A DNA stretch of 64,000 bases from Comamonas sp. 26 (GTDB taxonomy: Bacteria; Pseudomonadota; Gammaproteobacteria; Burkholderiales; Burkholderiaceae_C), in the NCBI RefSeq assembly GCF_002754475.1, contig NZ_PEFL01000003.1, positions 186,001-250,000 of the forward strand, read 5' to 3'. Positions 23,236-61,617 of the stretch are shown here, piece by piece. Both the position numbers and the translations under genes were made by a program. The notes beneath the pieces are model-generated. The model searched no databases and was not told the DNA's origin. It worked only from the letters and a program-made list of their open reading frames with translations. Each line of letters begins with the position of its first letter. Within the stretch, counting starts at the first letter, position 1.

Positions 23236-23334
23236 TGTAAACATCTCTCTGAAAGCTAGTCAGAAGGCCGACTACGTAAAATTTTACTCTAACCCATGTA
23301 AACAAGTAAGCGTTTTTTGGCAAGTTGTTTACAT
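23236..23334. repeat. Left-end recombination-site motifs
   Basis: TGTAAACAT (23236-23244), GAAGGCCGA (23263-23271), ATGTAAACA (23296-23304), and the inverted GTTGTTTACAT (23324-23334). The last two form an imperfect inverted repeat of 10 of 11 bases around a 19-base spacer, the layout expected for paired tyrosine-recombinase binding arms. About 100 bases separate the cluster from the first cargo gene stop. Confidence 0.6.
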
Positions 23335-23432
23335 TGCGTGATTAGGTGCCCCATGAAGGATGTTCCAACACTAGCTAGGTGACGAAATCGCACCAAGCAG
23401 AGCAGAACAGCCAACCACTGAACAGCATCAAG

Positions 23433-25349
23433 CTAGCCCAGCACTTCTATCGCCCATCCTTGCTGTTGAAGTGCGGTCACGCAGTCCGCAGATACGCGTG
23501 CTTGGTTCACCGCTAGGCACAAGAAGCTAGTGGGCCTGGACATCCCGACATATAAGCCTCTAAATTGCGACAGGACACTTTCCTTCATCTTAGGGTCACG
23601 AACATTTAGGCCGGCGAGGACAGGTAGGGCCTCTTGCAAATCAAACCTGCGGCTTCGATACCCAAGCGACTCAAGCACTAGAGTGGCAAGGTGGGTTTCA
23701 CCCTTCATTGAAGCAACTGTGCCAATTTCCACCTCCACACTACGACCATCCTTGGTGACACGGCAACGCTGCTGGTCGACTTCCTGCTCAGGCTCTTTTT
23801 CAGGAGGGGCAAAGACAGGAAGAGCCTGGAACTTGGCAAATGTCATCCCGGCTGGAAACAAGGGATGCAAGTATTGATAGAAGATAGCTACTGCTCTGGC
23901 CCGTCCGTCGTCACTGCCATCGAGGTCCGTCGCAAGAGCCAGAGTGTGAAATAGCTGAACGACAGCGGTTGAGTCTTGTCCCGCGTCCGCGAGACGTCGA
24001 ACCAATTGAGAGCCGTCGCGCACGCCTTCAATGTGTGGAGACTTCACTGCACGCAGTACGAGTAACGTGGCTCGCTTTACATCTATTGCCCTCGAGTACA
24101 TCGAACCTTCCCTGAGCTTCGCCTCGGAAGGTTGACGTAAAAGAGCCCAAAGGCGCTCTGAGCGTCCTCCAGCTTTGGATTGTTCAAGATAGGCTGGCCA
24201 GTAATCGAGCAGCGTGCGACCAGGCTCCTGCGTTGCGGCGTTACCTTGCTTGCGAGCACAAAGAGCCTTTACCGAGCTTTTGTCTAGGGTGGCATCGTCG
24301 AACCTGTCGAGTACACAGTGGGCGAAGTGCCCGACCACATCTGCGACGCGTGCTGCCGCGTACATCAATAGCATGGGCGGGTGGACATCCCCCGCTGCGC
24401 CAGTGACCGCTGCACCGCCAACCCTTACGGTCGATACTGCGGAGGCAATAGTGGGACCAAACCTCTTGCTGCTGCTTATTGGCAGTGCGACTGTGCCGGG
24501 GAAACTCAGTTTCGATGGGTCTGCTCCGCTACCCAGTATGCGTTGGTTGACGTCACCGAATCGCTGTACTAGCACCGATGCATTGAAAAGCTTGTCGAGC
24601 AAGGCCTCCTGCTCGATGGACGTATCCTGCATTTCATCGATGTAGACCATTGGAAATCTACGCGAAATATGCTCTTTGATGTCGGGGTACTGAGCAAGCT
24701 GGGCCTCTGCGATGGCGAACATATCCGCGTATCGGAAGATGCCGGCCGCTGTGAGTTCAGCTTTGACGTTCGCGAGGACGGGATAGGTCTTTGCACTCTC
24801 TTTCGGAAGGGTTCCTTCCTCAGAATGCAGCTCTAGGGCCGGTCCTCGGAAAACCAAGCCTCCAATCATCGGCTTTACGCCTTCACTTTTCTTTGCCCAT
24901 CCCCACACTGAGGGGTTTTTTATCGCAAGAGCAATGGCTTTTTGGGCGAACACATCGTCATCGATGACATCGACGGTAATGCCGCTGCTACGCAATGCAG
25001 GTAAAGCCAGGAAGCGGTCAACGAAGCTATGAATGGTGCCGATGAAGTGTGGGTAGGCTAGAAGCCGGGCCCCTTCAGGAGTCGCCGCTAGTCTCTTTTG
25101 GATTTCATCACGAGCGACCGTCGTGTGACTGAGTACGCAGATGCCGCGCTGGTCATACGGCCACTTGCGTGCGTGCAACAAGAGCTTGGCGGCAAGGACA
25201 GTAGTCTTTCCACTACCAGGTGCTGCATTGATATCCCAAGTACCAGTTGCCAACAATACTGCTTGGCGCTCAGCGTCGGTGAAGTCGAGTCCGGGCGCTA
25301 GAGACTTCAGTTCAGCGAGGTCGTCTGGGGTAATGGCAGGGATGCTCAT
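23433..25349 (-). CDS. UvrD/Rep-like helicase, Gabija GajB-like
   Basis: 638 residues. The superfamily-1 helicase core has Walker A NAAPGSGKTT (residues 41-50), motif Ia LSHTTVARDEI, motif II MVYIDEMQDTS, a QRFGDVNQRI motif III, and a C-terminal FRGLYVGMSRPTSFLCL (motif VI). In Gabija the GajB helicase-like subunit works with the GajA nuclease against phage. Here it starts four bases inside the end of the OLD-nuclease gene, so the two are coupled. It is longer than the founding GajB (about 490 residues), so this is a divergent member or another class 2 OLD system. Confidence 0.8.
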   Translation of the reverse strand: MSIPAITPDDLAELKSLAPGLDFTDAERQAVLLATGTWDINAAPGSGKTTVLAAKLLLHARKWPYDQRGICVLSHTTVARDEIQKRLAATPEGARLLAYPHFIGTIHSFVDRFLALPALRSSGITVDVIDDDVFAQKAIALAIKNPSVWGWAKKSEGVKPMIGGLVFRGPALELHSEEGTLPKESAKTYPVLANVKAELTAAGIFRYADMFAIAEAQLAQYPDIKEHISRRFPMVYIDEMQDTSIEQEALLDKLFNASVLVQRFGDVNQRILGSGADPSKLSFPGTVALPISSSKRFGPTIASAVSTVRVGGAAVTGAAGDVHPPMLLMYAAARVADVVGHFAHCVLDRFDDATLDKSSVKALCARKQGNAATQEPGRTLLDYWPAYLEQSKAGGRSERLWALLRQPSEAKLREGSMYSRAIDVKRATLLVLRAVKSPHIEGVRDGSQLVRRLADAGQDSTAVVQLFHTLALATDLDGSDDGRARAVAIFYQYLHPLFPAGMTFAKFQALPVFAPPEKEPEQEVDQQRCRVTKDGRSVEVEIGTVASMKGETHLATLVLESLGYRSRRFDLQEALPVLAGLNVRDPKMKESVLSQFRGLYVGMSRPTSFLCLAVNQARVSADCVTALQQQGWAIEVLG

Positions 25350-27277
25350 GCTGCACCAGGCTTTCCTGTAAGCCAGTTAAGTGCATGTTGCAAATACGGT
25401 GGAAGCTTTGCGAATAGCTGGTCACCGGACCCATAGTTTCCAGTCGCGACAAGGTGGGCTGCGTATTGCGCAGTGACAGCTTTAGATGCCTTACCAGCTG
25501 CAAGTGGCTCATAGATGGCCGAAGCGAGGGCATCTGCATTGGGGGCTGTCGACGTGAGCGCTGCCCATTTCACCTCGGCTTCGGCCAAAGCGAGCAGCTC
25601 GTCTTTTTCATCCAGGCTTTCGCCTTTGGCCTCTGCCTTTATCGCGAGCTGGATAGCAATAAACATCAGCTCTGCGCAGCCATAACGGGCCAAGTCGTAC
25701 TCAAAGGTCCAGTGGTCAGATACGCAGACAATGGTGTTTCCGCCTGCTGCCCGCTTGACCTTCCCATCCACCACAGCCAGCAACTCAGCGGGTGAATAGT
25801 CAGATTCGAACCGCTTCTTCCCGTTTTCAGGCTTCTTGATGTACTTAACCGCTGTATCGGGAACGACATCTCGGTCGGTCAGGCATGCCACCGGGATAGG
25901 GATGACCTCATCCTCTTTTGCACGTTGGAGAATCCGCGCGTAGTGGTACAGCCCGACACCACCGACGTTCACCACAGCGAGGCCGTGCTTTGAGAAGGAC
26001 ATGCCGCAGGCCTTAGCCAAAGCAGGCAGCAACAGTGCTTCGGCCGGGCCTTCCACAATTGCGACACCTCTGGCGAAGAAGAGGTTAGCCTTGGTCGCAT
26101 CCAGGAAGCGGCGCAGAAATTCGTAATCACTCATCTTCAGCTTCGTCTTGTCATGCGCCAGGCTAAACACTTGGGCTTTGTGGACAAGCGTCATCGAAGC
26201 GATGTTGGCTCCAGCTGCAAGGGATGGGCTGTGGGTGGTCATGATGACCTGGACCGGACGCTTCCCTTCTTGAGGGTGGTTGGACGTTTGCTCCAACAGC
26301 TCTTGTACTCGCTCCTGCAGCTGAGGATGCAGGTGTGCTTCGGGCTCTTCGATAAGGAGCAGTGCCAGCTCATCCCCATCTCTGAGCAATACAAGCTCGG
26401 TGGCCATGAAAAGTGCATTGTTGTAGCCGAGCCCTCGTGCACATCGCAAATCTGGATGAATGCCTGCCGACGGCAACAGGCCCAGTTCAAACTTCTCAAG
26501 GACAGGTTGAAGGGCCAAATCAGGCGCAATCTGGATACGCGATTCAAGCGTATCGCCCGCAAAGGCAAACTTCCCCAGGTAGTTCTGGTTGATATCGTCC
26601 TCAACACCCTTGATGACGGGATGTTTGCCAAGGTGATGCTGGGTAAACGCCATCAATCCAACCAAATTTTGGGGAGTCTTGTCGGCATCCGTCGCATCAA
26701 AATCGTTCTCTTCCTGGCCTTGGATGCTCCTATGTGCTCCAAGAATTTGTGAGAGCCGCGATTGACGTCCTGGCTTCAGTTCAGCCTCGGCATCCCGTAG
26801 GGGGCGCAAGTATGTAGCGCGTACCAGTTCACGGATGGCGCTACCGATTTCTGGTCCGTTGCCGTCTCTACCTGCGCGAGTGATTGCATCAACGCGGCCT
26901 CGCTTGTTGTCGCGTGGAGGTATCCAGCGGGCTTGGAGGTGAAGGATGAGGCTTCGCGTCCCGTCTTCTTCGTAGGTCAGCCACTCAAGTACCGCTGCTT
27001 CTTGGTCGGCATTCAAGCCAACCAGAGTAGCCTCGATGAACATCGACTGGGCGCGAGTTGAGCCCTGCGTGTGGAAGTCTTGCTCCTGCAGCCGAATGAA
27101 CTCATAGCTCGTAGTCCATAGAACGTGGCGGATGGCGTCGATGATTGAGGTCTTACCCGCGTCGTTCTCGCCAATCAGAATATTTAGACCGGGAGCCAGG
27201 TTCCAATCTAGCTGCGAAGAGGTCTTACCGTCACCGAAAGCACGAAAATTCTGGGCACGGATTCGCTGAAGATGCAT
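25346..27277 (-). CDS. Class 2 OLD-family ATPase/TOPRIM nuclease, Gabija GajA-like
   Basis: 643 residues from ATG at 27277, chosen for its GGGAGA ribosome site. The N-terminal ABC-type ATPase has Walker A GENDAGKTS (36-44), Walker B LLLIEEPEAHLHP (about 307-318) and switch His in TTHSP. The C-terminal TOPRIM nuclease domain has Glu409 in AIVEGPAEALLLPAL and Asp468/Asp470 in LTDRD. Class 2 OLD nucleases are by definition next to a UvrD-like helicase, as here. This pair corresponds to Gabija, an anti-phage system that nicks or degrades DNA when nucleotides are depleted. Founding GajA is about 580 residues. Confidence 0.82.
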   Translation of the reverse strand: MHLQRIRAQNFRAFGDGKTSSQLDWNLAPGLNILIGENDAGKTSIIDAIRHVLWTTSYEFIRLQEQDFHTQGSTRAQSMFIEATLVGLNADQEAAVLEWLTYEEDGTRSLILHLQARWIPPRDNKRGRVDAITRAGRDGNGPEIGSAIRELVRATYLRPLRDAEAELKPGRQSRLSQILGAHRSIQGQEENDFDATDADKTPQNLVGLMAFTQHHLGKHPVIKGVEDDINQNYLGKFAFAGDTLESRIQIAPDLALQPVLEKFELGLLPSAGIHPDLRCARGLGYNNALFMATELVLLRDGDELALLLIEEPEAHLHPQLQERVQELLEQTSNHPQEGKRPVQVIMTTHSPSLAAGANIASMTLVHKAQVFSLAHDKTKLKMSDYEFLRRFLDATKANLFFARGVAIVEGPAEALLLPALAKACGMSFSKHGLAVVNVGGVGLYHYARILQRAKEDEVIPIPVACLTDRDVVPDTAVKYIKKPENGKKRFESDYSPAELLAVVDGKVKRAAGGNTIVCVSDHWTFEYDLARYGCAELMFIAIQLAIKAEAKGESLDEKDELLALAEAEVKWAALTSTAPNADALASAIYEPLAAGKASKAVTAQYAAHLVATGNYGSGDQLFAKLPPYLQHALNWLTGKPGAA

Positions 27278-27654
27278 TAGGTCTCCCTCAGTAGGCGCTT
27301 GAGTATTTTTATGATGTGGCCTGTTACTGGCCATCCAACTGGGTGCAAGCTAAATGCTGGGTACACCCGCCTGAGTAAACCAATGTACAGCAGCTGCTCG
27401 GGAGCACTGCATGGTTCAAGATGGCTCAACTCTCAGGCCGGGTTGTACCAGAGAAAAACCGCAAAACGCATCCTGCTGAGGGTGGACTCCTTGCATCAGT
27501 TTTTTGCGCCTTCGGACATCTCATTTTCAAAAATCAGATAAAAAACACTTCCAAGTTATTGTTTTTAAAGGAACAGATATCACGCCACAAAAATTTTGCG
27601 GGACAGTGGTAGTAATGGTTATAAATTAAGCTGCGTGACATCAGGAAGGGCGCA
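27278..27654. other. Divergent promoter region between Gabija-like operon and nuclease gene
   Basis: About 380 bases. A 63-codon frame (27421-27612) is open but has no recognisable family. The 3' half is AT-rich (27530-27640), suitable for the promoter of the gene at 27655. No repeat or terminator noticed. Confidence 0.5.
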
Positions 27655-30137: not shown

Positions 30138-30196
30138 CGAAAATTCCGATAGTGATTTCGAACTCGGTCAACACAGATTTGAAGGTTTCAATACGC

Positions 30197-31951
30197 ATGT
30201 CTCAAGTGCTTCGTCCGGCTCTCAGTCTTGCTGAACCACTCGCAGCCATCGAACGGCGACGCGACGGTTCGCTGTTGCTAAGGTCCCCACACCAATTGGG
30301 AAATACAGCTCGCTGTGCTTCCGAATGGCTACATAAGTGGTCACAACTCGACCCCAGCCGGACTTTTGTTGCTGAACGCTCGGGCGATGGATGGAGGCGA
30401 GTTAGCTACGCTGAAGCCTTGGATTCCGCACAACGTATTGGACAAGCGCTTGTCCGCCGAAACTTGGGTGTTGACGCACCTGTGATGGTTCTCTCGGAAA
30501 ACAGCGTGGACCATGCGTTGATAGCACTAGGAGCAAGCTACGTCGGCGTGCCGCTGGTTGTCGTCTCGACGGCATATTCGCTCTTGAGTCAGGACCATGA
30601 AAAGCTTCGGAATATTGCCAAGCAGGTGAGTCCAGGGCTCGTTTACGTCTCGGACCCTACGCGGTACCAAAGAGCATTACAGGCAATTGCTATGCCTGCC
30701 ACTTCAATCGAAGAATTGCTTGCTGAGCCTTCAGATGGCACTGCCGAGCGAGCCAATGCAGAGGTTCAACCTACTGACATAGCAAAAATTCTGTTTACCT
30801 CAGGCTCAACGGGCGCACCAAAGGGCGTAATTAATACGCACCGAATGATTACGGCCAATCAGCAGCAGGTACTTCAGATTTGGAAATTTCTAGCAGAGAC
30901 CCCACCCGTTGTTGTTGACTGGCTTCCATGGAGCCACACTTTTGGAGGCAACTTCAACTTCAACATGGTTCTGGCAAACGGCGGGACTCTGTACATCGAT
31001 GGTGGCAAACCGCTGCCTGGCCTCTTCGACGTAACGTTGCGCAACCTTCGCGACGTCTCTCCGACGATGTACTTCAATGTGCCACGCGGATTGGAAATGC
31101 TCTTACCGCATCTCGAATCGGACGCAGAGCTTCGTCAAACGTTCTTCAAGAAGTGTCAGATAGTTTTCTATGCAGCGGCGTCACTTCCAAAGCATGTGTG
31201 GGCTGGCTATGAGCAGCTTGCGGCACAAGAGCGAAACGGAGACATGGCTCTGGTATCGGCTTGGGGTTCCACAGAGACAGCTCCAATGGCTACAGCCGTC
31301 CACTATCCCGGAAGCACCTCTGGAGTAATCGGCCTTCCTGTGCCTGGCTGCGAGGTCAAGCTTGTGCCAACGGCTGGGAAATTGGAAGCAAGGCTACGTG
31401 GACCAAACATTACGCCGGGCTACTGGAAGCAAGAAGAACTCACAAAACAGGCGTTCGACGAGGAAGGCTTCTACTGCATTGGAGACGGTCTCAAGTTTGT
31501 CAAGGACAGTGCTCCTGAACTGGGCCTGATGTTTGACGGCCGAGTCACGGAGGACTTCAAGTTGGTCACTGGCACTTGGGTGCATGTCGGCGCTCTGCGA
31601 GTTCGACTTTTAGAAGCAGCAAAGGGTCTGATTCAGGATGCCGCAATTACAGGTCATGACAGGAGCTGGGTTGGTGCACTCGTATTTCTGAACCCATCCA
31701 TCGCTGCCAGCCTATCAACTATCGAAATTCAGACGAGGCTCCGCGAGGCCCTGCACGTTTTGTCATCTGGCGCGCAAGGAAGCTCACTCATCGTCGCGCG
31801 GCTGCTGCCACTTACAGAACCAGCGTCCCTTGATGCAGGCGAAATTAACGACAAGGCGTACCTCAACCAAGGTGCAGTCCTGCGTCACCGTGCTGCAGAC
31901 GTTGAGCGCCTCTACGCAGACGCTCCTGAGCCTGAAGTCATTCAGGCCTGA
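30197..31951 (+). CDS. Feruloyl-CoA synthetase-like AMP-dependent ligase
   Basis: 584 residues from ATG at 30197 ([21 protein letters not shown]); GTG at 30152 is an alternative. ANL-superfamily motifs: P-loop [49 protein letters not shown], and a [12 protein letters not shown]8 region. The WLPW-HTFGGN-NFN stretch is characteristic of feruloyl-CoA synthetases. The enzyme should activate an aromatic or cinnamic carboxylic acid to its CoA thioester. No feruloyl-CoA hydratase/lyase or aldehyde dehydrogenase is in the window, so the actual substrate and next step are open. First gene of the plus-strand demethylase operon. Confidence 0.82.
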
Positions 31952-31997
31952 AATCTCTTCTCCAGCTTCCCCTCTCCTTCCTCACTCAGTCTTCAAT

Positions 31998-33344: not shown

Positions 33345-33358
33345 TAGAGGAGATGCTC

Positions 33359-34219: not shown

Positions 34220-34304
34220 CTCAAGGTCCCTGAGCCTGGAAGTGGGGAAACACCCATAGACCTGGTCAGGGCCTAACTAGCAAGCACATAAACAGGAGAC
34301 AAGA

Positions 34305-35273: not shown

Positions 35274-35343
35274 GCATTCGCCAACGGGTCCACCTTAAAG
35301 AAGGTGGGCTCCGGCAATCTATACAGCGTGAAGAGCATATTGA

Positions 35344-50539: not shown

Positions 50540-50682
50540 AAAGGGAGATGCTTTACTTCAGCCAGTCGCTGTGGAACGCCTTCCATGACTGGTTAGGGTC
50601 GCATGCAGCCGCTGGTCAGCTCAAGCATACCGGTCAGCTCCGAACGGAATGAAGGTCAACGATGGCCAGCACCCGCAGGCAG

Positions 50683-51183: not shown

Positions 51184-51244
51184 GTTTGCCTGGCTTACTG
51201 GCAGGTCAGCAGGTACAGATGAACGCCGGTTGGTGCCGCTGATT

Positions 51245-51802: not shown

Positions 51803-52383
51803 ACAGGCTCAGCTCGCTGCGGCTCCTGGCCGAGGAGTCGGAGTTCTCCTTCAGTTGCAGTACTCATGCTATCTGTGTGCAGGTTCATCCAGTCACGAAG
51901 CTTCTGCTGGACGCTGATGTCCGATATCCCCGTCTCACTCTCACAAAGTATCAATGTCGGCCAAGAACCTGGCGGCCCCGGAAAGAACTTAGGTTTGTCG
52001 TCTAGCACGACGTAGTCAGTGATGGCGTTGAGCTCCAACCAGGCACGTATCGCTACGTCTCGTCCTATTTGGGGATTGCCAATGGAACCACCGTACCAGC
52101 GGGCAATTGGAGCAAGGAGTTCTCCCAGCTGGGCGTCATTCAAGAAGATGCGCCAGGAGCTGCTGACAACCACTGCGATATTTGAATGCTTCTGCAGCAG
52201 GTCCGCGAGGATGCCAAGGTGCTGGAAGGTGCCTGGCCATCCCGCTCGAATTTCGTGCGGCTCAAGCGGAGGCCTCGCACCTGCAATAGCTCGGGGTGGA
52301 TGCAGGACTCCGTCAAAGTCTAAAAAAATGACGCGACTGCATTGCTCTGCAAGCTTGTTAGGTCCGTACTTCGATGAAGTCAT
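51799..52383 (-). CDS. HAD phosphatase, SAK type, copy C
   Basis: 194 residues from ATG at 52383; TTG at 52395 is an alternative. Motif I RVIFLDFDGVLHPP, motif II VVVSSSWRIF, motif IV YVVLDDKPKFF. PF18143-like by the same pattern as copies A and B. A hydrophilic C-terminal tail follows the domain. First HAD gene of the operon, 82 bases after the upstream hypothetical gene. Confidence 0.8.
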   Translation of the reverse strand: MTSSKYGPNKLAEQCSRVIFLDFDGVLHPPRAIAGARPPLEPHEIRAGWPGTFQHLGILADLLQKHSNIAVVVSSSWRIFLNDAQLGELLAPIARWYGGSIGNPQIGRDVAIRAWLELNAITDYVVLDDKPKFFPGPPGSWPTLILCESETGISDISVQQKLRDWMNLHTDSMSTATEGELRLLGQEPQRAEPV

Positions 52384-52465
52384 CAGTTCAACCAATCAAA
52401 AGGACAATAACTTGGGTGTGACACGTCGCCGGCAAGCAAGTCGATGCCAATGGACTCGAAATAGA

Positions 52466-52930
52466 CTAATTTCGTGAACGCCTCTTTGCAGAAGCTCCGG
52501 AAATTTCGAACAGTGGTACCCAGTCATCCGACTCAGCCCTCACGACAGGCTTCATAGAGTGGCCGTCGAGATATTTGTCTGGAACGTCAGACGTCTTTAG
52601 GGCTAACTTTTCGCTGTGGCGCCCTGGGCGGACCCAAACCTCTTCTATGGGCTGCATGGCCAAGTTAGTCTGCTGTTTGGAGTAGGTGATGCAGTGCAAC
52701 GCAACAATCAGATAGGACTCTTGGGTGCTTCGAAGCCTACGGAGTGCCTCTACATCCGGGAACATGGCCGTCACTCGCTCTGAAATCGGCTCCCCTCTGG
52801 GTTGGACAGTTGCAATGAACATAGGCGCCGCACAGTCTTTGACGACGCTGCCCCAGTACCCACCACCGTTAGGGAAAAAGACCTTCTGATGCGGGTAGGG
52901 AATCTGGTTTTCGGGCAAGCAAAGAAACAT
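52466..52930 (-). CDS. Hypothetical protein heading the HAD operon
   Basis: 154 residues from ATG at 52930; TTG at 52942 possible. Cytosolic, mixed alpha/beta. A run YLIVALHCITYSKQQTNLAMQPIEEVWV sits in the middle. I recognise no family or catalytic motif. It shares the promoter region with the divergent XRE gene and precedes the HAD genes by about 80 bases in the same direction, so it is likely part of the same system. Confidence 0.65.
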   Translation of the reverse strand: MFLCLPENQIPYPHQKVFFPNGGGYWGSVVKDCAAPMFIATVQPRGEPISERVTAMFPDVEALRRLRSTQESYLIVALHCITYSKQQTNLAMQPIEEVWVRPGRHSEKLALKTSDVPDKYLDGHSMKPVVRAESDDWVPLFEISGASAKRRSRN

Positions 52931-52963
52931 GAAATTCCACAATAGCTACCACTCTATTGTGTC

Positions 52964-53030
52964 ATATATAGCACTACCATATACAGCAACCTTCTATATA
53001 GCACCGCTCTATATGAAGTCGACATATAAG
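52964..53030. promoter_or_regulatory. Cluster of TATATAG-type repeats between HAD operon and XRE gene
   Basis: ATATAGCAC at 52966-52974 and 52996-53004, ATATACAGCA at 52979-52988, ATATGAAG at 53011-53018 and ACATATAAG at 53022-53030. Five related AT-rich boxes in about 65 bases of a divergent promoter. They are probable operators for the neighbouring XRE regulator, possibly overlapping -10 boxes. Confidence 0.6.
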
Positions 53031-53053
53031 GAGAGCTGCAACAACATGTCGGG

Positions 53054-53302
53054 ATGTACATCCCGAAGCTTCCAAAGCAGAAAACGACGGTCTCAACAAA
53101 GGAGGTACTAGCTAAAAATCTCGTGCGCCTCCGAGCGGAACGGCAGATGTCGCAAGAGGACCTTAGCTACATGGCTGGCTTGGGTAGAACATATGTCAGC
53201 CACATCGAACGACGGGAGCGCAATGTCACCCTTGAAACGTTAGAGGCACTTGCGGCAGGCCTTGGCGTCTCTGTTCGTGACCTGTTTGATGAGTCCAATT
53301 AG
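53054..53302 (+). CDS. XRE-family regulator (controller-protein-like)
   Basis: 82 residues. The helix-turn-helix spans about 20-80: LVRLRAERQMSQEDLSYMAGLGRTYVSHIERRERNVTLETLEALAAGLGVSVRDLF, a textbook Cro/C1-type domain close to restriction-modification controller proteins. The best ribosome site (AGGAG, 53029) is nearer to an ATG at 53045 in another frame, which reads a 21-codon peptide ending at a stop at 53111; a translational leader is possible. Divergent from the HAD operon across the TATATAG cluster. Probably represses both promoters. Confidence 0.82.
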   Translation: MYIPKLPKQKTTVSTKEVLAKNLVRLRAERQMSQEDLSYMAGLGRTYVSHIERRERNVTLETLEALAAGLGVSVRDLFDESN

Positions 53303-53593
53303 TACTTTGGGTCGCCAATTGCGGGCGCTGGTATCAAACCATCCCGAGGCGCGATACGGGCCTGCCTGTACGCCCCTTTGCAGACACTGCATGGCGTCCT
53401 ATTGGCACTCATGCAAATTAGATGCGTGCATCCCGATTAGCATTCTCTTGGCGGCGTCTAAGTCGCCTTTCTGAGCTACGGCTTCAGTGTTCGACTCATT
53501 TCTTCTGACAAATAGCCAAATTTCGGCCACTGTATCGCCCCGGCTTTTTGGCCCGACTGTCTGGCCACTAGGGCTTTCGCGTCCGAGCAGTTT

Positions 53594-54586
53594 TTAGCGG
53601 GTCGGCTGCTTCTTTGCTGATAGCAGCAGGTCATTCTCAGTAAAGGTGCCTTTCGCCATGCGCCCTTGTTTGTGAAGAAAGGTATTCAGTTTTAGGAAGG
53701 CGCGACCGAAGGCATTGAGCTGAAGCAACAGGCGATAGGTCCGGACCTCTCCATCCTTATCGATGGGGACAAGCTTTCCAGGGGGAGGCCTTTGCTCATA
53801 CCACTCAGCGAAGGTTTCTCCGTAGTAGGTCGTACCCGTCTCTGGGTCTGTACCCATGTAGCATTCCGCTTCCCAGCTCCCTTCCAAGGACTCTTTGTAA
53901 GCCTCAAGGTCGCTGCCATAGTCCGCCCAGGGAATGAAGTGCTGAAGCAAGTCTTCGATGGTGCTGCCTGCTGCATAGAAAAGCGGCCAACGCTGAGTCT
54001 TACCACCGCCGGTCATCGTCACCTGATAGCGTGGCAGCGATTTGTTGGCCCAATCATCGAACTCCATCACAACTACTTTACGTTGCTGGAGCAGCTTCAT
54101 CCAGGGAACGTCTAGACGCAATCGATTGAGTCGTTGGATGTAGGGTTCTGGTTGGACCATCTCAGCGAACTGAGGCGGAATAACACCCTCCATCAATCGT
54201 TGGCACGTTGGAATTGTTAATTTCCAGCCCTTGCCGGCACTAGCCAGGTTGTCCTTAGTGACCTGCTGCCAGTACATCTCCTTCTCATCTGGATGGTAGA
54301 AGAGCATGAGCACAGGCATTGTGTGATTCAGCCAGTACTCGACATGCTTTTGTTCGGGGCGAAAGATGAAGCTGGATGGACCAGCTTCTTCAAAAAAGCT
54401 TCGACCAGACTTGATTTGAAGTGCCAGAAGCTTTCCCGTGGGGTAGCTTCCGTCGGCATCAAATATTTCGACATGAGCGTCGATACCAAAGTCATGGACG
54501 AACTGCTCGCGAAAGAGCCATCCATAGCTAGCAAAGATTGTCGCAGCGTAGGTAACGCCAAACCGCTCTGTGAGTTGGATAGCCAT
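53594..54586 (-). CDS. DUF4365 domain protein
   Basis: 330 residues. The N-terminal 150 residues match DUF4365: FASYGWLFREQFVHDFGIDAHVEIFD (Asp36, Glu40), LLALQIKSGRSFF (Gln57, Lys59), FRPEQKHVEYWLNHTMPVLMLFYHPDEKEMYWQ. The conserved Asp/Glu/Lys pattern suggests a PD-(D/E)XK nuclease fold. The rest, from about 165, is unassigned. DUF4365 proteins occur often in defence islands. Stand-alone here; upstream gap to the next gene is about 190 bases. Function unknown. Confidence 0.78.
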   Translation of the reverse strand: MAIQLTERFGVTYAATIFASYGWLFREQFVHDFGIDAHVEIFDADGSYPTGKLLALQIKSGRSFFEEAGPSSFIFRPEQKHVEYWLNHTMPVLMLFYHPDEKEMYWQQVTKDNLASAGKGWKLTIPTCQRLMEGVIPPQFAEMVQPEPYIQRLNRLRLDVPWMKLLQQRKVVVMEFDDWANKSLPRYQVTMTGGGKTQRWPLFYAAGSTIEDLLQHFIPWADYGSDLEAYKESLEGSWEAECYMGTDPETGTTYYGETFAEWYEQRPPPGKLVPIDKDGEVRTYRLLLQLNAFGRAFLKLNTFLHKQGRMAKGTFTENDLLLSAKKQPTR

Positions 54587-54779
54587 TTGATATCTGAACC
54601 TCTTCTATTGACGGTGGAGCAGCTGCGGCGGCCCCTCGCAAGGGTGATTTCCGCTTTGAGCCATTGACCTACCTTCTCAAGGGAGTCCTTGGCCGCACGA
54701 ACGGCATCACACCATCATTGGACGGCGTGATGCCTTCCAGAAGTCTCTTGAGCCGCGGATTCGCCGGTTGCGAAGCTTG

Positions 54780-55724
54780 TCAGTCCTCTATGCGCTCAAC
54801 CATACCTACAAGGGTATGGCTGACTTTTGGAGCTCTTGCAGGGCGAGTGACGGTTCTCGTCTTAATAAGAACCCTCCATCGTTCACCTATGGTATTGCCG
54901 GCGGCCAGAAGTGCCTCCAAGTCCCGCCGTGCGAACTCACGAGCGACCGCGCCGACGAGAGGCGGTTCACCTTCGACAAGTCTCAGCTCAAATCGTCGGG
55001 CTGCAGGAAGTATGAAGATGCGGCCAGTGAGCTCTGTTGCCTCGCTATCCACAATGCTGGCCGCTCCGGCGCGCTCTCTTCCTCGGCGGACTGCATCCAG
55101 GTTGAGCTCAACCTCACGCTCTTCCTCGACAACGCGGACCACGGCCCTCTTGTCGTCGAGCACTTCGAAGAACTGGCCTAAAGAGTTCAGAAAGCGTGGG
55201 TCCATGCGCTCCAGCGCTTGCTCGAACTCATCACCTTCCTGTGCCGCAGCGGCCGACACTGTGTCCACAACGTGGTCAACTACCACTTTCAACTGAGTAT
55301 CAGCAAATGCGTCTGTCTGAGCAGCTTCCTCAAGGAGCAAACCAACAGAACCTCTGACAACGTTCGTGACGATGAGGTCAGAGTTGGCTTGCATGGCAAC
55401 GGGCCCACGGCGCCCAATGTCGCCAACTTCTTCGAGTGCGAACTGCTTAGTCACCATCTCCTGGAATAGCGTCACGGTCCTTGCTGCGAACGTGGCGTCG
55501 ATGCCATGCGAGCCAATCACAGGGCCACCCGAGAAAAAAAGACCTACTGCGGCCCTATGGGTGGCTACAGCTACTACCTCATCGACCTTTGCCTGCAAAG
55601 CATCCCGTCTCTGAGACAGTTGCAGGAATCCGATGGGGTCGGCCTCCGGGGTACGTTCTTCCAGCAGGGAATTGATAGACCCTAGGTCTGCGCGCAACGC
55701 TTGAAGTTCAAGCCGCTTGAGCAT
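54780..55724 (-). CDS. Hypothetical partner of the DUF6932 protein
   Basis: 314 residues, very rich in Glu, Arg, Val and Ala. Starts with a helical stretch (LKRLELQALRADLGSINSLLEERTPE) that could be coiled coil. The central part SDLIVTNVVRGSVGLLLEEAAQTDAF is a likely short hydrophobic segment. No family recognised. It overlaps the DUF6932 gene by 17 bases, so the two are translated together and may form a complex or a toxin-antitoxin-like pair. Confidence 0.7.
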   Translation of the reverse strand: MLKRLELQALRADLGSINSLLEERTPEADPIGFLQLSQRRDALQAKVDEVVAVATHRAAVGLFFSGGPVIGSHGIDATFAARTVTLFQEMVTKQFALEEVGDIGRRGPVAMQANSDLIVTNVVRGSVGLLLEEAAQTDAFADTQLKVVVDHVVDTVSAAAAQEGDEFEQALERMDPRFLNSLGQFFEVLDDKRAVVRVVEEEREVELNLDAVRRGRERAGAASIVDSEATELTGRIFILPAARRFELRLVEGEPPLVGAVAREFARRDLEALLAAGNTIGERWRVLIKTRTVTRPARAPKVSHTLVGMVERIED

Positions 55725-56283
55725 CCTGTGCCTCCAATTGTTCTAGTATCACCAGTGCTTGTGCGTCATCGCTGAGCAGAGGCATTGTGACCAGCCCCTT
55801 CCACATGAACGTATCCCGTTGATGTGAGAACAGGCCGTACCAGTACATGGTGTCCTGCACGACATATCGTGCATCCTTTGCCAAGTCTACGAAGTACGCA
55901 TCGCAAGAGTACGCCTCTTTCACTGCTGCTGTATCAAATAGCGCAATGTGCTCACCCAGAAAAGCGGCGGCTTCTTGAGCAGGAACCGGAAGATGTGAAA
56001 AAGTGACCAAGTCGATGTCGCTTGGAGGCCTGCTACGAGTGCGCTCGCAATCCTCCAAAAAGCTGCCGTCGATGATTTGAAAACCAGTCACGATAGCAAT
56101 AGACCGCAGGGCCTGCCGGAAATCCAATAGCCCTCGCAAGATGCGTCTTCGCTCCGGCGAATAGCCGAACTGGACAACCATCTCGCTCATGGACGCCTTA
56201 TAGGGAGACGCCTTCTGACGCTCGTCAGGGCCATCCCCAAGGAAAGGGGGCAGCACTCCAGACGCGTTGAACGATGGCAACAC
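55708..56283 (-). CDS. DUF6932-like nucleotidyltransferase
   Basis: 191 residues from GTG at 56283, which has GGAGAG upstream; the open frame to 56370 adds unrelated basic sequence. The family start LPSFNASGVLPPFLGDGP and YKASMSEMVVQFGYSPERRRILRGLLDF are followed by the nucleotidyltransferase signature: Gly73-Ser74 in IDGSFLED and Asp89/Asp91 in RPPSDIDLVTF. DUF6932 proteins are uncharacterised MNT-like enzymes. With its overlapped partner it may be a two-gene accessory system. Confidence 0.75.
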   Translation of the reverse strand: MLPSFNASGVLPPFLGDGPDERQKASPYKASMSEMVVQFGYSPERRRILRGLLDFRQALRSIAIVTGFQIIDGSFLEDCERTRSRPPSDIDLVTFSHLPVPAQEAAAFLGEHIALFDTAAVKEAYSCDAYFVDLAKDARYVVQDTMYWYGLFSHQRDTFMWKGLVTMPLLSDDAQALVILEQLEAQDAQAA

Positions 56284-56532
56284 GTGTCTCTCCGTTCTCG
56301 TTTTGTTGGGCCGAGCCCAATGATGCCATGTAAACAAATGATTCAGATGTCGTGCTCGAGCCCTAGCCATTCAGGGGTGCCGCATCGAATGGGAATGCGT
56401 CGGAGTTGCCAGTGCCTTAAGCATGGCCTGGACCTTGTGTATGGAAACCCAAAACCACCCTCGCAAACCCGTCCTGCGCGAGCTGACCAGCTCAGTACCG
56501 CTTTCTAGGTCGTAAAGGATGGCGTAGGCCAA
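56284..56532. other. Intergenic region downstream of the recombinase operon
   Basis: About 250 bases between the coiled-coil gene and the DUF6932 pair. No gene, hairpin or repeat noticed. Confidence 0.4.
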
Positions 56533-56943
56533 CTACTTCCTGCTAATGGGAGGCAATGGCTGATTGAGAAAGTTGGCATCCAACCCACGCGTATTCGCGT
56601 TGTATGCCCACCGGACGAACTGTTCAAGCAGCCTCGTGTTCTCAAGCTCAAGCCGCTTATTTTCGGCCTCTAGTCTGTCCGCTCTTTGCCATGCGAGCTC
56701 CAATTCAGGGCTGGAGGCCACCTTTGGACTGCGAGGCTTCTCTGAAGAAAGTGTCTTTTTACGCAGAGTGAAGGCATCCCGAATACGAACGTGTTTGTGC
56801 AACGCCTGGCGCGTGTAACGAACGAAGAGATGCTTCTCAATCGAATCAATGAGGGCATCCCACGTCAAACCGCCTGACCAACCGTCCAATATGCCGACAA
56901 TCCTTGCGATGTCCTCATCATCAAGATTCTTTGCTCGGCTCAT
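56533..56943 (-). CDS. Small coiled-coil protein of the recombinase module (TnpC-like)
   Basis: 136 residues. Residues 1-60 hold a helical domain (DDEDIARIVGILDGWSGGLTWDALIDSIEKHLFVRYTRQALHKHVRIRDAF) that looks like a DNA-binding winged helix. Residues 80-115 are heptad-like (RADRLEAENKRLELENTRLLEQFVRW). Tn554-type elements carry a comparable small third gene (TnpC) that aids and orients transposition. Overlaps the 3' end of the upstream recombinase gene by four bases; last gene of the operon. Confidence 0.75.
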   Translation of the reverse strand: MSRAKNLDDEDIARIVGILDGWSGGLTWDALIDSIEKHLFVRYTRQALHKHVRIRDAFTLRKKTLSSEKPRSPKVASSPELELAWQRADRLEAENKRLELENTRLLEQFVRWAYNANTRGLDANFLNQPLPPISRK

Positions 56944-58685
56944 TCAGTAGCTCCTTCTTCAACAACAATCCATTTCAGCAAGCGGTGCTCGTCGGACTTT
57001 TTTTCAAGGGCTGCGCGGGCTTTCACTGCATGCTGAAGTCGAGATGCTTGCTCAACGTGCGTGAGGCGAATAAGGGCACCCTCCGGAACCCGCGGGTTGT
57101 CCAAGATGGCGATAAGCTCTGACAGGCGAGAGTGGGTCAACGTCTGGTGCTGAACCCAGCGCGACGCACCATACTCCCCGTCGGCATCAGCTTCTTTCGC
57201 AGCTTCCAGCAGACTCGCTGTTTCCTCATGCGCTGCCCTTGCGTTGGCTTCGCCGACCTTGTCCCCCTTGATACACACCTGCTCGTTGCAGTTGTTGCAA
57301 TCCTGATGGAGTGGACATGGGGACATGACGAAGTCGTGGACACAAATACCGAAATCCGTTGTGTGAGCCGCCTTAATTCCTAGCTTCTTGAACTCTGACC
57401 TCGGAACGAGGCTGATGCGAACCTGAGGGACCAAATCGGTCGATGAGCTTTCCTCAACTTCTCTCTTAAGCTCAACAATACGGGCCTGGACGTCACGGTC
57501 GGAGACATGGTTGTATGCCTCGTTTTGGCGAATGTCTTTACGACCGGACCACTTCGCAATGTCCAACTCACTCAAGCCTCCAGCTTGAGCGAGTGTGTTC
57601 AAGTAGTGCCGGAACTGGTGCGTCCGAATACCCTTGCACCACTGCCCTGGTGACGTCCGACTAACAGGCTCAGCGAAAAGGACTTCTCCTAGTTCCTCCA
57701 TGAACAAGTCTTTCCCTCGTAGGTGCTCTAGGTGCGAAGGCAGGTACATCGCGCTCGGATTGTCCTCGTACCAACGAGCCACCTGCCGGGCTTCGGAGGA
57801 AGTGCCCTGCAACCTTCTAATCGCCTCCTGAACCACTGAACTCATTGATGGCACAACCCATTTGACCATCGGGTCTGCACCTTTCGATGGCCAGAAACGT
57901 AGCCCATACGCTTCAGGCGCTTCCTGCCGGGAGCTATGCACCTCACATCCTGTCTGGAGCCTCAGCACTTCATTCACGCGGTCCGGGGCCGAGCACATGA
58001 TTGCGGCCACAGATGCCACAACAACGTCCGGGGTTTCAGATGCAGCACGGAATGCTCGAGCCAGCGCGTCAAGAGCGAAGGGGGAAGGGAGCATTTCCTG
58101 CCGGCGAGCTTCAAACTCTTCACCAACTCGCCCAGCCGTCTGCACCGGGCGCTCAATCGGGTTTACCCAACGCAATGGGACAGAAGCCAACCGGTTGTTG
58201 TCTATGAATGACGCCAACATTTCTAGCTGCTGCCCAGTCCGATAAGCAGTGTCCTTACCGTAATGAACAGTTATGAGCTGAGCTGCGCGATTGAGCACCT
58301 GGCCATGAACGAGAGTGACGTCATTCGAACCATATTCAGCCAATGCAGCACCTAAGGCCCGGGTTGCAGCAAGCCGAGAACCTATGGATTTTGTTGGACA
58401 AAAGGCATGTTGATAGCGGAAGTAGGACTTTGCGAAAGCGGCATAGGGCTCAGCCATAGGTGTCGGCTCGCTGTCATCGGCAGACTCCCACGTGCTGAAG
58501 ACTGCACGCAGTGCCCCATTTTTGCCTTTGAGCTTTATGTGGTTCGTCACATCCCACTTCATCTCGTCGAACGGGAGGTCAGCCCCTAAAGCTGTCAATT
58601 CGTCACGACACATGGCAACGAACGCCACCAGATTTTTCTCAGCACTGAGTTCGCGACGTGGCTTGAATAGAACCAAGTTAGACAT
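56940..58685 (-). CDS. Tyrosine recombinase 3 of the trio
   Basis: 581 residues. Catalytic pattern: Arg in SAPDRVNEVLRLQTG, His-x2-Arg in RTHQFRHYLNTLA, then KWSGRKDIRQNEAYNHV with the nucleophilic Tyr. A Cys/His cluster after it (CPLHQDCNNCNEQVC) probably binds zinc. The long N-terminal half is a SAM-like core-binding region without further recognisable motifs. Overlaps recombinase 2 by eight bases and the coiled-coil gene by four. Confidence 0.87.
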   Translation of the reverse strand: MSNLVLFKPRRELSAEKNLVAFVAMCRDELTALGADLPFDEMKWDVTNHIKLKGKNGALRAVFSTWESADDSEPTPMAEPYAAFAKSYFRYQHAFCPTKSIGSRLAATRALGAALAEYGSNDVTLVHGQVLNRAAQLITVHYGKDTAYRTGQQLEMLASFIDNNRLASVPLRWVNPIERPVQTAGRVGEEFEARRQEMLPSPFALDALARAFRAASETPDVVVASVAAIMCSAPDRVNEVLRLQTGCEVHSSRQEAPEAYGLRFWPSKGADPMVKWVVPSMSSVVQEAIRRLQGTSSEARQVARWYEDNPSAMYLPSHLEHLRGKDLFMEELGEVLFAEPVSRTSPGQWCKGIRTHQFRHYLNTLAQAGGLSELDIAKWSGRKDIRQNEAYNHVSDRDVQARIVELKREVEESSSTDLVPQVRISLVPRSEFKKLGIKAAHTTDFGICVHDFVMSPCPLHQDCNNCNEQVCIKGDKVGEANARAAHEETASLLEAAKEADADGEYGASRWVQHQTLTHSRLSELIAILDNPRVPEGALIRLTHVEQASRLQHAVKARAALEKKSDEHRLLKWIVVEEGATE

Positions 58686-60252
58686 CCTTGGTCTCCTCGC
58701 TGGCTTCTACAGGGAGCAACTTTGTCTCTTCACTTGCCTTAACAGCGGGATTTTTTTTCTCCTCGCAAAGCCGAATCACTGCGGCAACGGCAAAGATAGT
58801 CCGGTCATTGATAGACGCAATTCGCTTGTCTGTGGTTTGAAGCTGCCTGTCACGGTTTTCAAGAAGGTGTGCCAAGACGCCTTCGTGTGGCCCATCAACC
58901 CATGCTTCGAAGCTTGAGCACGTGTAGCAAGCAATGGGAGCATTGAAACCACAGAAACCGTGTTTCCCACAGTCCCCCATAGGTGCACCGCTGCGGTCGA
59001 CACGCAAGTCGATAATGCGATTTGAGGTGTCAACGCCCAACCCATCCACCAATTTCCCAGCAAACGCCTGGGCCAAAGGCGCAATTCCCATTGCAATTAC
59101 TCGGTCGATTCGGTCGATGATTGCTGGAGAGCTGGCTGTATACACCTGAACATTCTGGGTATCACTGTGGTCAAGGAGGGCTGCGATTTCGAGCTCGCTG
59201 TAGCCTTCCTCTGCCGCCCGCGTCCCTGTCGTTCTTCGGAAGCGTGTTGGAGTAATGCTCATCACCTCTCCCGTACGCTCTGAGACGACCGACAGCCCCT
59301 CAAGCACGGTGGTGATAGTCTTTCCAATATCCAGCGCAGTCCGGTGAAATTCGAATCCGTTAGTACCACCCGCCGAGCGCTTTGTCGGAAACAAAGGTGC
59401 CTGCATCGGGTCCACCAAACGGCCCTCAAATTGCTTGCATACACCTTCAGCATAAGCTACAAGAATTTCGCCAAACTGCTCAAGGAGAGAGCGCTCTTTC
59501 AGTTCTGCACGGGCGTTCTTAGTGCGTTTCTTGGCGCGAGGCATGTGTATCGAGTACTTAAGTACCCCCTCAGCATTTCTCTTAACCCGTACATCGCAGA
59601 CCTTTAGGGCTGCGTATTGCTGATTTCGCTGACCCAGCAAAATGTACAACCAAGCCAAGACGTAGTCTTCTTCAGACACTGACCCGCAGGCATAGGCTTG
59701 GTTCAACGCGGCGTGAAGGCCCTCCATCTCGTTGGTTGTGAATGGACCATCTATGGGGTCCCAGGTCAGCACAGCTATACCTTTTCGATTTCCCTTAAGT
59801 CGCAGCTGCTTCAGCAGTAAATCCACGCCCTCATCAACACCGGGATAACCCAGCTGAATCCATTTCCTCAGAAATCCGGCGAGAGTTCCGAGATACCAAC
59901 CTGTCGACTCGTCAAGGCCCGCACGGTAATTGAGTAGGCTCACATCACTGATACTTGAGAGCTGACTCGGCGTCATACGAATGAAGTGCTGGAATCGCTG
60001 AAAAAGATTCCTCATATGAGCGGATGAATTGTTCTCGGCGTACCAAGACAGCACTCTTTTCGCACTCTCACGTAACTCATCTGAAATGTTCGTCAGCTGA
60101 CTAAAGTTCAGACTCACGTCTGTCACGTCATCACGAAATGCCCAGATATCAGCACTGGCGTCAAACTCAATACCAGACTTGGTGCGCACCGGTCCTAGCG
60201 TACTCAAAGGACGGGCGGGGAGATTCTCAGTGGTAGGCAAGTCTTTTTTCAT
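58678..60252 (-). CDS. Tyrosine recombinase 2 of the trio
   Basis: 524 residues. Catalytic Arg in LLGQRNQQYAAL, TRFRRTTGTRAAEEG (box II, with Thr-Arg in place of His at the first position), and LLDHSDTQNVQVYT with Tyr. Cysteines in GDCGKHGFCGFNAPIACYTCSSFEAW form a zinc-like cluster, as in TnpB of Tn554. Overlaps recombinase 1 by one base (stop/start TGATG-type junction) and recombinase 3 by eight. Confidence 0.87.
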   Translation of the reverse strand: MKKDLPTTENLPARPLSTLGPVRTKSGIEFDASADIWAFRDDVTDVSLNFSQLTNISDELRESAKRVLSWYAENNSSAHMRNLFQRFQHFIRMTPSQLSSISDVSLLNYRAGLDESTGWYLGTLAGFLRKWIQLGYPGVDEGVDLLLKQLRLKGNRKGIAVLTWDPIDGPFTTNEMEGLHAALNQAYACGSVSEEDYVLAWLYILLGQRNQQYAALKVCDVRVKRNAEGVLKYSIHMPRAKKRTKNARAELKERSLLEQFGEILVAYAEGVCKQFEGRLVDPMQAPLFPTKRSAGGTNGFEFHRTALDIGKTITTVLEGLSVVSERTGEVMSITPTRFRRTTGTRAAEEGYSELEIAALLDHSDTQNVQVYTASSPAIIDRIDRVIAMGIAPLAQAFAGKLVDGLGVDTSNRIIDLRVDRSGAPMGDCGKHGFCGFNAPIACYTCSSFEAWVDGPHEGVLAHLLENRDRQLQTTDKRIASINDRTIFAVAAVIRLCEEKKNPAVKASEETKLLPVEASEETKDV

Positions 60253-61553
60253 CAGTTTTTCTTATCTGTGGGCTTGAACGATTTGGCTTGCAGCGCTAGT
60301 GAGGCTTCATTGCTCTTTCGTTCGATATGCCTCTTCGTATAGTGACCGGCCATCCTCGATTGAGGGGACCAACCCATCGCCTGGCGCCGCATCCTTTCCT
60401 CATCCTCTGATGACACACCCTTTGTGTCCATTAGCTCGGAGAAATCGTCGTTCCAGGTGTGACGCAGCACATGAGGCGAAAGGTCATTAGTTAGTCCAGG
60501 CACCTTCGTCCGTAGCTCTCTGAAAAGCTTGTTGAGGGCCGGCTTTGACAGTGCTGCACCTGTACCGTTGGCCACAAAAAGGTAAGGATGGCGTCGCGCG
60601 CCCTTGATGCTCGAACGCGAACCCTTTTTATCCTTGCTCTTCCCAATGATGTAATCACGCGTAAGGTCCATTAACCCAGGACTAAGGGCTAAGAGCCTGC
60701 TTCTTGTCTTAACCAGTGGAGCGTTCCCGCGCTCATCCTCCGGGTTATCTGGTCGGCGGGTGATGACAACTTCTCCTTTGCGGAGATTGACGTCATCGAC
60801 ATAGACCCCCAGAAGTTCACCATTCCGAATACCAAGCAGAAGCAGCCACATGAAAATGAGCTGATTCCTAAGGCGAACATGCCTGCCCTTCCAAGGGTTT
60901 TCTGGGCTATCAGGGTTTATGACCTCTAGTATTCGGGCGCGCACCTCAGCACTGACACCTTGTCGGCCACCGGCGTCATGGTCGCGACCAGGGATGCGTG
61001 CATTCAGTTGGCCTACCACAGTCTCAGTCGCTACATTCAAAGCACGGAAGTGCTCGTGACCAACATCAAGCTTCAAGCGTCTGCCTGCGCTTAGCCATTC
61101 AATGTACTTGCGGATATATATGAGTCGAGTGGCCTTCGTTTCAGACTCGACTCGCTTTGAAGCTCTAGCTGAGGTGCGCATACGCGCTCTTTCAAGCGAA
61201 ACAACACGAGACGCTGCCTGCGACTTTTTTTTGTTTCCTAGGAGTGCGTCAAGCTCTTCTTGCTTCAGCCCTGCCAAATTCACAAGCTCATCTACTTCAC
61301 TCAACGAGAGAAGCTTTCCTTGCTCTAGGCGCTGATTCAGGTCGATACCCAAGTAACGAAAAACCTGCAGGCCGACCATCACGGCTCTAGCCGCATGCGC
61401 AATCGTGTTGGTCGCCAAACTGGTAGAGCGCAGCGCCGTCAGGATGAACAGCGTCACATCCCAGACTGGCACTCCAGTTTCTTCGCTTAGTAGCAGCGGA
61501 AGCCGCTCACCAGACTCCAAACGTATCGTTCTGACTTGATAGCCTACTGACAT
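60252..61553 (-). CDS. Tyrosine recombinase 1 of the trio
   Basis: 433 residues. Arg in LLGIRNGELLGVYVDDV, HVLRHTW (His-x2-Arg), MGWSPQSRMAGHYTKRH (His, Tyr). A complete catalytic set (Arg, His, Arg, His, Tyr). N-terminal SAM-like domain before. The ATG at 61553 overlaps a TGTAAACATG motif of the right element end, so the gene's expression may be controlled by recombinase binding there. First gene of the four-gene operon. Confidence 0.88.
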   Translation of the reverse strand: MSVGYQVRTIRLESGERLPLLLSEETGVPVWDVTLFILTALRSTSLATNTIAHAARAVMVGLQVFRYLGIDLNQRLEQGKLLSLSEVDELVNLAGLKQEELDALLGNKKKSQAASRVVSLERARMRTSARASKRVESETKATRLIYIRKYIEWLSAGRRLKLDVGHEHFRALNVATETVVGQLNARIPGRDHDAGGRQGVSAEVRARILEVINPDSPENPWKGRHVRLRNQLIFMWLLLLGIRNGELLGVYVDDVNLRKGEVVITRRPDNPEDERGNAPLVKTRSRLLALSPGLMDLTRDYIIGKSKDKKGSRSSIKGARRHPYLFVANGTGAALSKPALNKLFRELRTKVPGLTNDLSPHVLRHTWNDDFSELMDTKGVSSEDEERMRRQAMGWSPQSRMAGHYTKRHIERKSNEASLALQAKSFKPTDKKN

Positions 61554-61617
61554 GTTTACATTTCCTCAAAGGTAGTCGATAAGTACACACTATCGGCCTT
61601 CGAAAAAAATGTTAACA
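61553..61617. repeat. Right-end recombination-site motifs
   Basis: TGTTTACAT (61553-61561), TCGGCCTTC (61593-61601) and ATGTTAACA (61609-61617), the inverted counterparts of the left-end motifs. A further TTGTTTACAA lies at 61654-61663 beyond the ssb terminator. Spacing of the inner pair differs (31 bases right, 24 left), so the ends are similar, not identical. Confidence 0.6.

What the first reader, a model, noticed from the sequence alone, without database searches (positions are those of the whole stretch)
23236..61617. Island bounded by inverted end motifs with a three-recombinase module
Both ends carry the same three short motifs in inverted order: TGTWAACAT, GAAGGCCGA, ATGTAAACA (left + strand from 23236, right - strand from 61617). 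Three tyrosine recombinases plus a small coiled-coil protein sit at the right end in one overlapping operon. The recombinase 1 start codon lies in a motif. This resembles Tn554-like or recombinase-in-trio elements, but the recombinases are large (433, 524, 581 residues) and the cargo is about 38 kb. The element may belong to a little-described family with defined ends.
Basis: partly seen in the sequence, partly recalled or inferred. Interest (0 to 1): 0.7.

Follow-up and report, generated by a model that had tools for sequence, protein, structure and literature searches.

The report
GInt mobile island beside ssb gene
This is a 38-kilobase mobile DNA island of a known type (GInt) that inserted at the very end of the gene for single-strand DNA-binding protein; comparing it with relatives shows what such islands' ends look like and suggests how they enter new sites.

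Summary
In detail: motifs and the overlapping four-gene module sit where stated. [quoted passage not shown] Bardaji 2017), not Tn554 or RIT.

Beyond filing: (1) ginA-side ends share ACCT 8 nt inside a 6-bp core (11 of 17) and a TGT-type motif at +27 to +29 (16 of 17); 6 of 7 distal ends have ACCT at the same spacing. The founding paper reported no common feature at the distal end. (2) One E. coli GInt in eight replicons has CCGTTC at its distal side in 8 of 8, while the ginA-side 6 bp vary with the target: the SE/Tn554 rule. GInt movement is listed as untested. The window itself is ambiguous on this. (3) GinC keeps R, HxxR and Tyr in 120-121 of 121 proteins, contrary to print. (4) This copy's GinC lacks 103 residues, so it is probably locked. 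(5) GInt-like ends persist where gin genes are absent. Cargo: Gabija and a catabolic cluster.

The parts
23214..23219 (-). distal att core (attR), CCCTTT on the - strand; 23210-23219 and 61680-61689 form a 10-nt imperfect direct repeat
   Evidence: empty site in congener G240 (L016) joins the left flank up to 23219 to ssb from 61682 with an 8-bp overlap
61684..61689 (-). ginA-proximal att core (attL), CCGTTC on the - strand, the Pro-Phe codons ending ssb
61672..61675 (-). ACCT core-type site 8 nt inside the proximal core
   Evidence: same offset in 11 of 17 GInt ends
23228..23231 (+). ACCT core-type site 8 nt inside the distal core
   Evidence: same offset in 6 of 7 distal ends placed by empty site or flanking gene
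   Evidence: TGT at offset 27-29 in 16 of 17 ends
61620..61653 (-). intrinsic terminator carried by the element just downstream of ssb
   Evidence: hairpin plus T-run; found in 16 of 17 GInt ends
60252..61553 (-). ginA, tyrosine recombinase, 433 aa (likely catalytic R243, H361, R364, Y405)
   Evidence: Pfam Phage_integrase 1.8e-11; these four positions invariant in 7 of 7 aligned
58678..60252 (-). ginB, tyrosine recombinase, 524 aa
   Evidence: NCBIfam integrase_1 5.7e-165; alignment of 4
56940..58685 (-). ginC, 581 aa with an internal 103-residue deletion; the 120 listed relatives are 639-743 aa
56533..56943 (-). ginD, 136 aa
   Evidence: 49-61% identical to the fourth gene of three relatives
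23433..27334 (-). Gabija defence system: gajB 23433-25349, gajA 25346-27334
   Evidence: PADLOC GajB 757.6 bits, GajA 734 bits
27655..29145 (+). protein with a weak Mrr-type endonuclease match
   Evidence: Pfam Mrr_cat 9.1e-4, below the family cut-off
30152..46805 (.). catabolic cargo: AMP-binding ligase, GCV_T-fold protein, formyl transferase with ACT domain, TctC, FolD-type enzyme, porin, hydrolase, GntR/FCD regulator, branched-chain-type ABC transporter, VanA-type Rieske oxygenase and reductase
   Evidence: Pfam; methoxyaromatic O-demethylation is inferred
47462..56370 (.). further cargo: Fic protein, NucS-like protein, three HAD_SAK_2 proteins, DUF4365 and DUF6932 proteins, others without match
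61681..62244 (-). ssb, the target gene; its stop codon (61681-61683) comes from the element
   Evidence: Pfam SSB 6.9e-40; TAG here, TAA in the empty site
23147..23177 (.). hairpin that directly follows ssb in the empty site, now about 38 kb away

Best explanation
The island is a GInt integrated at the last two codons (Pro-Phe) of ssb. Shown by sequence: the four-gene gin module at one end, an empty site in a congener, imperfect att repeats, and an element-borne stop codon and terminator for ssb. Inferred: GinA, GinB, GinC and GinD recombine a circular form whose joint is AGGT-N8-[6-bp core]-N8-ACCT, the core being CCNTTY of ssb; on integration the target's own 6 bp stay on the ginA side and the 6 bp carried by the circle land at the distal side. 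Under this rule the distal CCCTTT (also Pro-Phe) would be a relic of the previous host's ssb. This copy has lost 103 residues of GinC and is probably immobile unless helped in trans. The confidence given is for the GInt identity and the boundaries; the 6-bp rule is rated in the section on the most novel reading.
For: Gene order, sizes and target match the published GInt definition. Empty site L016. GInts with GinA 41-65% identical sit at ssb ends in two Stenotrophomonas, Pseudorhodoferax and Roseateles, and five plasmid GInts (two P. aeruginosa, E. coli, K. oxytoca, Citrobacter) sit at plasmid ssb genes with empty comparators. Shared end features. 6-bp rule: one E. coli GInt read in eight replicons has attR CCGTTC in 8 of 8; attL is CCATTT twice, CCATTC twice, CCGTTT once and CCGTTC three times; empty IncN and F sites carry the attL 6-mer of their occupied forms. 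L121, GinA 85.8% identical, agrees: attB and attL CCGTTC, attR CCATTC. Locked copy: GinC deletion and only one ginA match in the own genome.
Against: In the window the sibling's attB core is CCGTTT while attL is CCGTTC and attR CCCTTT, which fits a crossover inside the core as well as the one-sided rule. G206 has attL CCCTTC and attR CCGTTC, while 22 of 28 ssb ends of the genus have CCGTTC: this fits the opposite polarity unless its own ssb carried CCCTTC. L119, L122 and L123 have equal cores and say nothing. Target 6-mers of the IncI and IncY plasmids are read from attL, not from empty sites. A matrix of proximal ends does not find distal ends blind (true end ranked 96, 20, 173, 277, 891, 1, 831). 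No circle or movement was observed.
Confidence: 0.93

Rival explanations
1. A RIT (recombinase in trio) element.
For: Three adjacent recombinase genes.
Against: RIT recombinases are described as 315-410 aa, with 34-bp terminal inverted repeats and three coding regions (table of PMC10214605); here 433, 524 and 581 aa plus ginD, and the ends share only short motifs.
Confidence: 0.02
2. A strand-biased circularizing element (SE) or Tn554-like element.
For: A one-sided 6-bp rule in a related GInt and a small auxiliary protein compared in print with TnpC and Srap.
Against: SE order is intA-tfp-intB-srap, and SE and GInt proteins form separate clusters in print; Tn554 has two recombinases plus TnpC. 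Here the order is A-B-C-D. I did not compare with SE or Tn554 sequences directly.
Confidence: 0.04
3. A patchwork region in which a gin operon happens to lie beside ssb, the 38 kb not moving as one unit.
For: Cargo is functionally mixed.
Against: The congener lacks exactly this segment and both ends carry GInt end features.
Confidence: 0.03
4. GInts move by ordinary cut-and-paste with random repair of a 6-nt heteroduplex, and the one-sided pattern in the E. coli GInt reflects a common donor.
For: Bardaji et al. found attI sequences of both kinds; window and G206 cores are not clean cases.
Against: In 5 of 5 replicons where the two differ, the distal side kept CCGTTC and the ginA side carried another 6-mer; L121 agrees with other letters.
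Confidence: 0.25
5. The short GinC is functional and the 103 residues are dispensable.
For: The deletion is in frame and leaves R236, HxxR and Y391 in place.
Against: All 120 listed homologues (of 1159 found) are 639 aa or longer; the segment is modelled with high confidence in a full-length relative, and confidence in the neighbouring region falls in the model of the short protein; GinC was essential in the GInt tested by Bardaji et al..
Confidence: 0.15

Closest known systems
GInt (Bardaji et al. 2017, PMC5385486; called Tn6571-family in PMC10121019)
   Same: ginABCD operon at one end, ssb target, imperfect att repeats, cargo that includes defence genes
   Different: GinC carries a 103-aa deletion here; a shared end signature, a one-sided 6-bp core and retained GinC catalytic residues are not described in the parts that I read
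SE (Idola et al. 2023, PMC10214605)
   Same: target's 6 bp kept on the integrase side and carried 6 bp placed distally (in a related GInt); small auxiliary protein
   Different: gene order intA-tfp-intB-srap; proteins in separate clusters; narrower host range (as printed)
Tn554
   Same: 6-bp footprint behaviour as described in print; TnpC compared in print with GinD
   Different: two recombinases plus TnpC
RIT elements
   Same: three tyrosine recombinases in a row
   Different: smaller recombinases, 34-bp inverted repeats, no fourth gene (as printed)

Membership tests
GInt | four-gene operon (three recombinase-type genes plus a small gene) at one end | tested here: met
GInt | site-specific insertion with 10-17 nt imperfect direct repeats; end of ssb as frequent target | tested here: met
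   empty site L016; repeats 23210-23219 and 61680-61689
GInt | tripartite structure with cargo (2.5 to at least 70 kb) after ginD | tested here: met
   cargo 23433-56370
GInt | all four gin genes needed for movement (activity of a copy, not descent) | tested here: inconclusive
   all four are present, but GinC lacks 103 residues found in relatives; activity not measured
GInt | excision as a circle | not testable with these tools
   needs PCR or reads
RIT | three recombinases of 315-410 aa | tested here: not met
   433, 524, 581 aa
RIT | 34-bp terminal inverted repeats | tested here: not met
   the two ends share only ACCT and short motifs
SE | gene order intA-tfp-intB-srap | tested here: not met
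   the two proteins with recombinase family matches come first, GinC third
SE | one-sided 6-bp core | tested here: inconclusive
   seen in a related E. coli GInt in 8 replicons; ambiguous in the window
Tn554 | two recombinases plus TnpC | tested here: not met
   three recombinase-type genes; fold match of full-length GinC

The most novel reading that the evidence does not exclude
GInts, SEs and Tn554 share one transposition chemistry in which the target's 6 bp always stay on the integrase side and the donor's 6 bp go to the far side. Because the core is the Pro-Phe codons of ssb, the distal 6-mer of each ssb-GInt is then a record of its previous host's ssb, and GInt ends left behind after decay become ordinary ssb terminators.
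Probability: 0.65. Interest if true: 0.62.

Novelty: new member of a known kind. Interest (0 to 1): 0.45.

Why it matters
How GInts move is listed as not tested (table in PMC10214605). In the E. coli collection 365 of 5,426 genomes hold a match to the ginA-side end of one GInt (360 of 377 records at 99% identity or more), and this GInt carries the defence gene avs4. An end signature, a 6-bp polarity readable from genomes and retained GinC catalytic residues turn the mechanism into simple sequencing tests. A target made of the conserved SSB tip codons would explain why distantly related GInts use the same site, which the founding paper calls remarkable.

Tried and rejected
Results against my reading or without success. 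A matrix trained on GInt proximal ends does not locate distal ends blind (ranks 96, 20, 173, 277, 891, 1, 831). The same matrix, used for scars, scores 2 of 17 true ends below the 99.9% null level in leave-one-out (G039 4.4, G252 6.1), and one of the five flagged loci (L034, 8.0) lies below the highest of 8,400 null scores (9.87). The TGT motif was found by letting the script look at offsets 25-34. Inverted-repeat searches gave the right distal end for the window and G206 but wrong or unclear places for others; plasmid ends were placed by empty sites. The context print chose a wrong downstream match for L119, L121 and L123; their right starts (29539, 33520, 38626) were read from its alignment table and used. 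In one search the line '0 of 120 homologues with 70 or more residues in the missing region' comes from counting only the longest gap run; one search is the valid count. In one search three of 15 rows (G252, G028, G279) were other ORFs picked by mistake and dropped; re-read them: G252 and G028 show R, HxxR and Y, G279 shows box I but did not match the HxxR pattern. In one search, 6 of 16 genome-search loci gave no ginA frame and were not read; of the 10 that did, L047 and L063 show no ssb end upstream. G367's distal end has no empty site and is left out of the seven. A profile search of GinC against solved-structure sequences found no recombinase. Considered and rejected: RIT, SE, Tn554, gamma-mobile-trio (GmtY 21.3 bits, cut-off 340).

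Papers. PMC5385486: parts 1-3 of 6 of the text and passages. PMC10214605: abstract and outline, GInt section, part 1 of 2 of the Background, passages, Discussion. PMC10121019: passages. PMC8138268: one passage, in its reference list. All others: search listings. That GInt core polarity is not in print rests on searches and on these readings; supplements, figures and subscription papers were not seen, and Idola et al. print GInt termini in a figure that I could not see. 'P1-like', 'VanA-type demethylation' and the role of the SSB tip are recalled knowledge.
Full report
Observation. Two of the three motifs are clearly more frequent than in shuffles; GAAGGCCGA alone is not.

Boundaries. Of 53 genomes of the genus (own genome included), 51 gave a match to the ssb query. 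In the nearest (G240, locus L016, 95% identical over ssb) the window's left flank up to 23219 is joined to ssb from 61682 with an 8-bp overlap. Empty site: CTTTTTAAAACGGGATATCG; window left: CTTTTTAAAA|GGGCAG; window right: CTCTAG|AACGGGATATCG. So the element is 23214-61683, 38.47 kb, in the Pro-Phe codons of ssb. The ssb stop changes from TAA in the empty site to an element-supplied TAG; a terminator carried by the element follows; the hairpin that follows ssb in the empty site is now at the far end.

Ends. Seventeen ginA-proximal ends at ssb were compared: ACCT at offset 14 in 11 of 17 and a terminator in 16 of 17; TGT at offset 27-29 in 16 of 17, followed by lineage-specific letters (AAACA, TAACA, CAACA, TGAT, AAAGA and others). 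Of seven distal ends (five by empty plasmids; window by L016; G206 by the adjacent FHA gene), 6 have ACCT 8 nt inside the core. L120, L121 and L123 are related, so this is about five lineages. The founding paper says that no common feature was identified at the 3' end. The signature is too short to find distal ends blind.

Six-bp polarity. The GInt with GinA WP_000414651 was read in eight replicons: IncN (L120), two F-type (L129, L137), chromosome (L132/L133), two IncI (L138; NZ_AP017893, L144), two IncY (L139; L142/L143). AttR is CCGTTC in 8 of 8. AttL is CCATTT (L120, L139), CCATTC (L138, and NZ_AP017893 by 100% identity over the stretch), CCGTTT (L142) and CCGTTC (L129, L132, L137). So in 5 of 5 replicons where the sides differ, the variable 6-mer is on the ginA side. 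F-type L136 showed two proximal ends and no distal end in the stretch and is not counted. The empty IncN and F sites carry CCATTT and CCGTTC as in their occupied forms; IncI and IncY were not seen empty. K. oxytoca L121 (GinA 85.8% identical) agrees. Published SE and Tn554 movement follows this rule, whereas GInt movement is listed NT and its strand bias called elusive. Against: window and G206 are ambiguous or fit the opposite side (see the Against line). The eight attR cores listed (seven elements plus G367, whose end is unverified) all translate as Pro-Phe, as expected of ssb relics.

GinC. In 121 proteins (window plus the 120 listed of 1159 found) the box-I R, the R of HxxR and the Tyr are conserved in 121, the H of HxxR in 120; the second H/W position is R in 121. 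Eight further GinC from fetched loci (L119-L123, G294, G408, G206) agree. Bardaji et al. report the first R missing in GinC; Idola et al. say that it lacks the RHRY motif. Either their GinC differs or the residues were missed. The window GinC is 581 aa, 567 identical to the 684-aa P0001 of Comamonas sp. wu1-DMT with one 103-residue gap; 120 of 120 listed homologues are 639-743 aa; the other 11 valid rows have 101-103 residues there, the window none. Blocks 201-350 of the models score 69-96 in the full-length relative and 56-82 in the short protein. The own genome gave no second ginA match. I infer a locked copy.

Scars. A matrix from the 17 ends, applied to 28 ssb ends of the genus (29 loci; L030 gave no end), puts six above the 99.9% null level of 6.77: L024, which is the occupied G206, and five others (L039, L017, L036, L033, L034). 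The ginA profile found no match in these five genomes, and tblastn of the four Gin proteins found none in about 35-40 kb beside L039, L036 and L033. On plasmids, 525 records match an IncY ssb query; two were read (L140, typed IncHI1B; L141, typed IncY) and have a GInt-like end right after ssb with no ginA in the 1.36 kb stretch; their whole records were not searched.

Cargo. Gabija at the distal end and a cluster whose Pfam content suggests methoxyaromatic O-demethylation with one-carbon recovery (inferred). Of the five plasmid GInts L119-L123, three carry defence or restriction genes by annotation (L119, L120, L123); L121 and L122 show none.

Verdict. A known kind, a new member, probably an immobile copy; the value lies in the comparative evidence on GInt ends, core polarity and GinC.

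Noticed in passing
L125 1995-2546 vs L119 19335-19853; L128 2170-2700 vs L121 19338-19841: In two plasmid pairs the empty-site ssb runs on past the DDIPF tip (552 and 531 nt); GInt insertion supplies a stop and leaves ssb genes of 519 and 504 nt ending at DDIPF.
   Followed up: partly
L140 and L141 from position 874: A GInt-like end directly after ssb without ginA in the stretch; in L140 an anti-phage dGTPase gene follows, a product also annotated in the cargo of the Citrobacter GInt L123.
   Followed up: partly
L047 (G246:C1:2521075-2522325): A ginA relative in a congener whose upstream sequence is not an ssb end, so perhaps another target site.
   Followed up: no
L136 11842-20701: An E. coli plasmid with two copies of ssb plus GInt proximal end in the same orientation.
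   Followed up: no
G252, G028, G279, about 4.4 kb into the fetched island stretches: A similar P-loop (GGAGVGKTT) protein lies after the gin genes in three GInts.
   Followed up: no
50683-52395: Three successive HAD_SAK_2 proteins of unknown role in the cargo.
   Followed up: no
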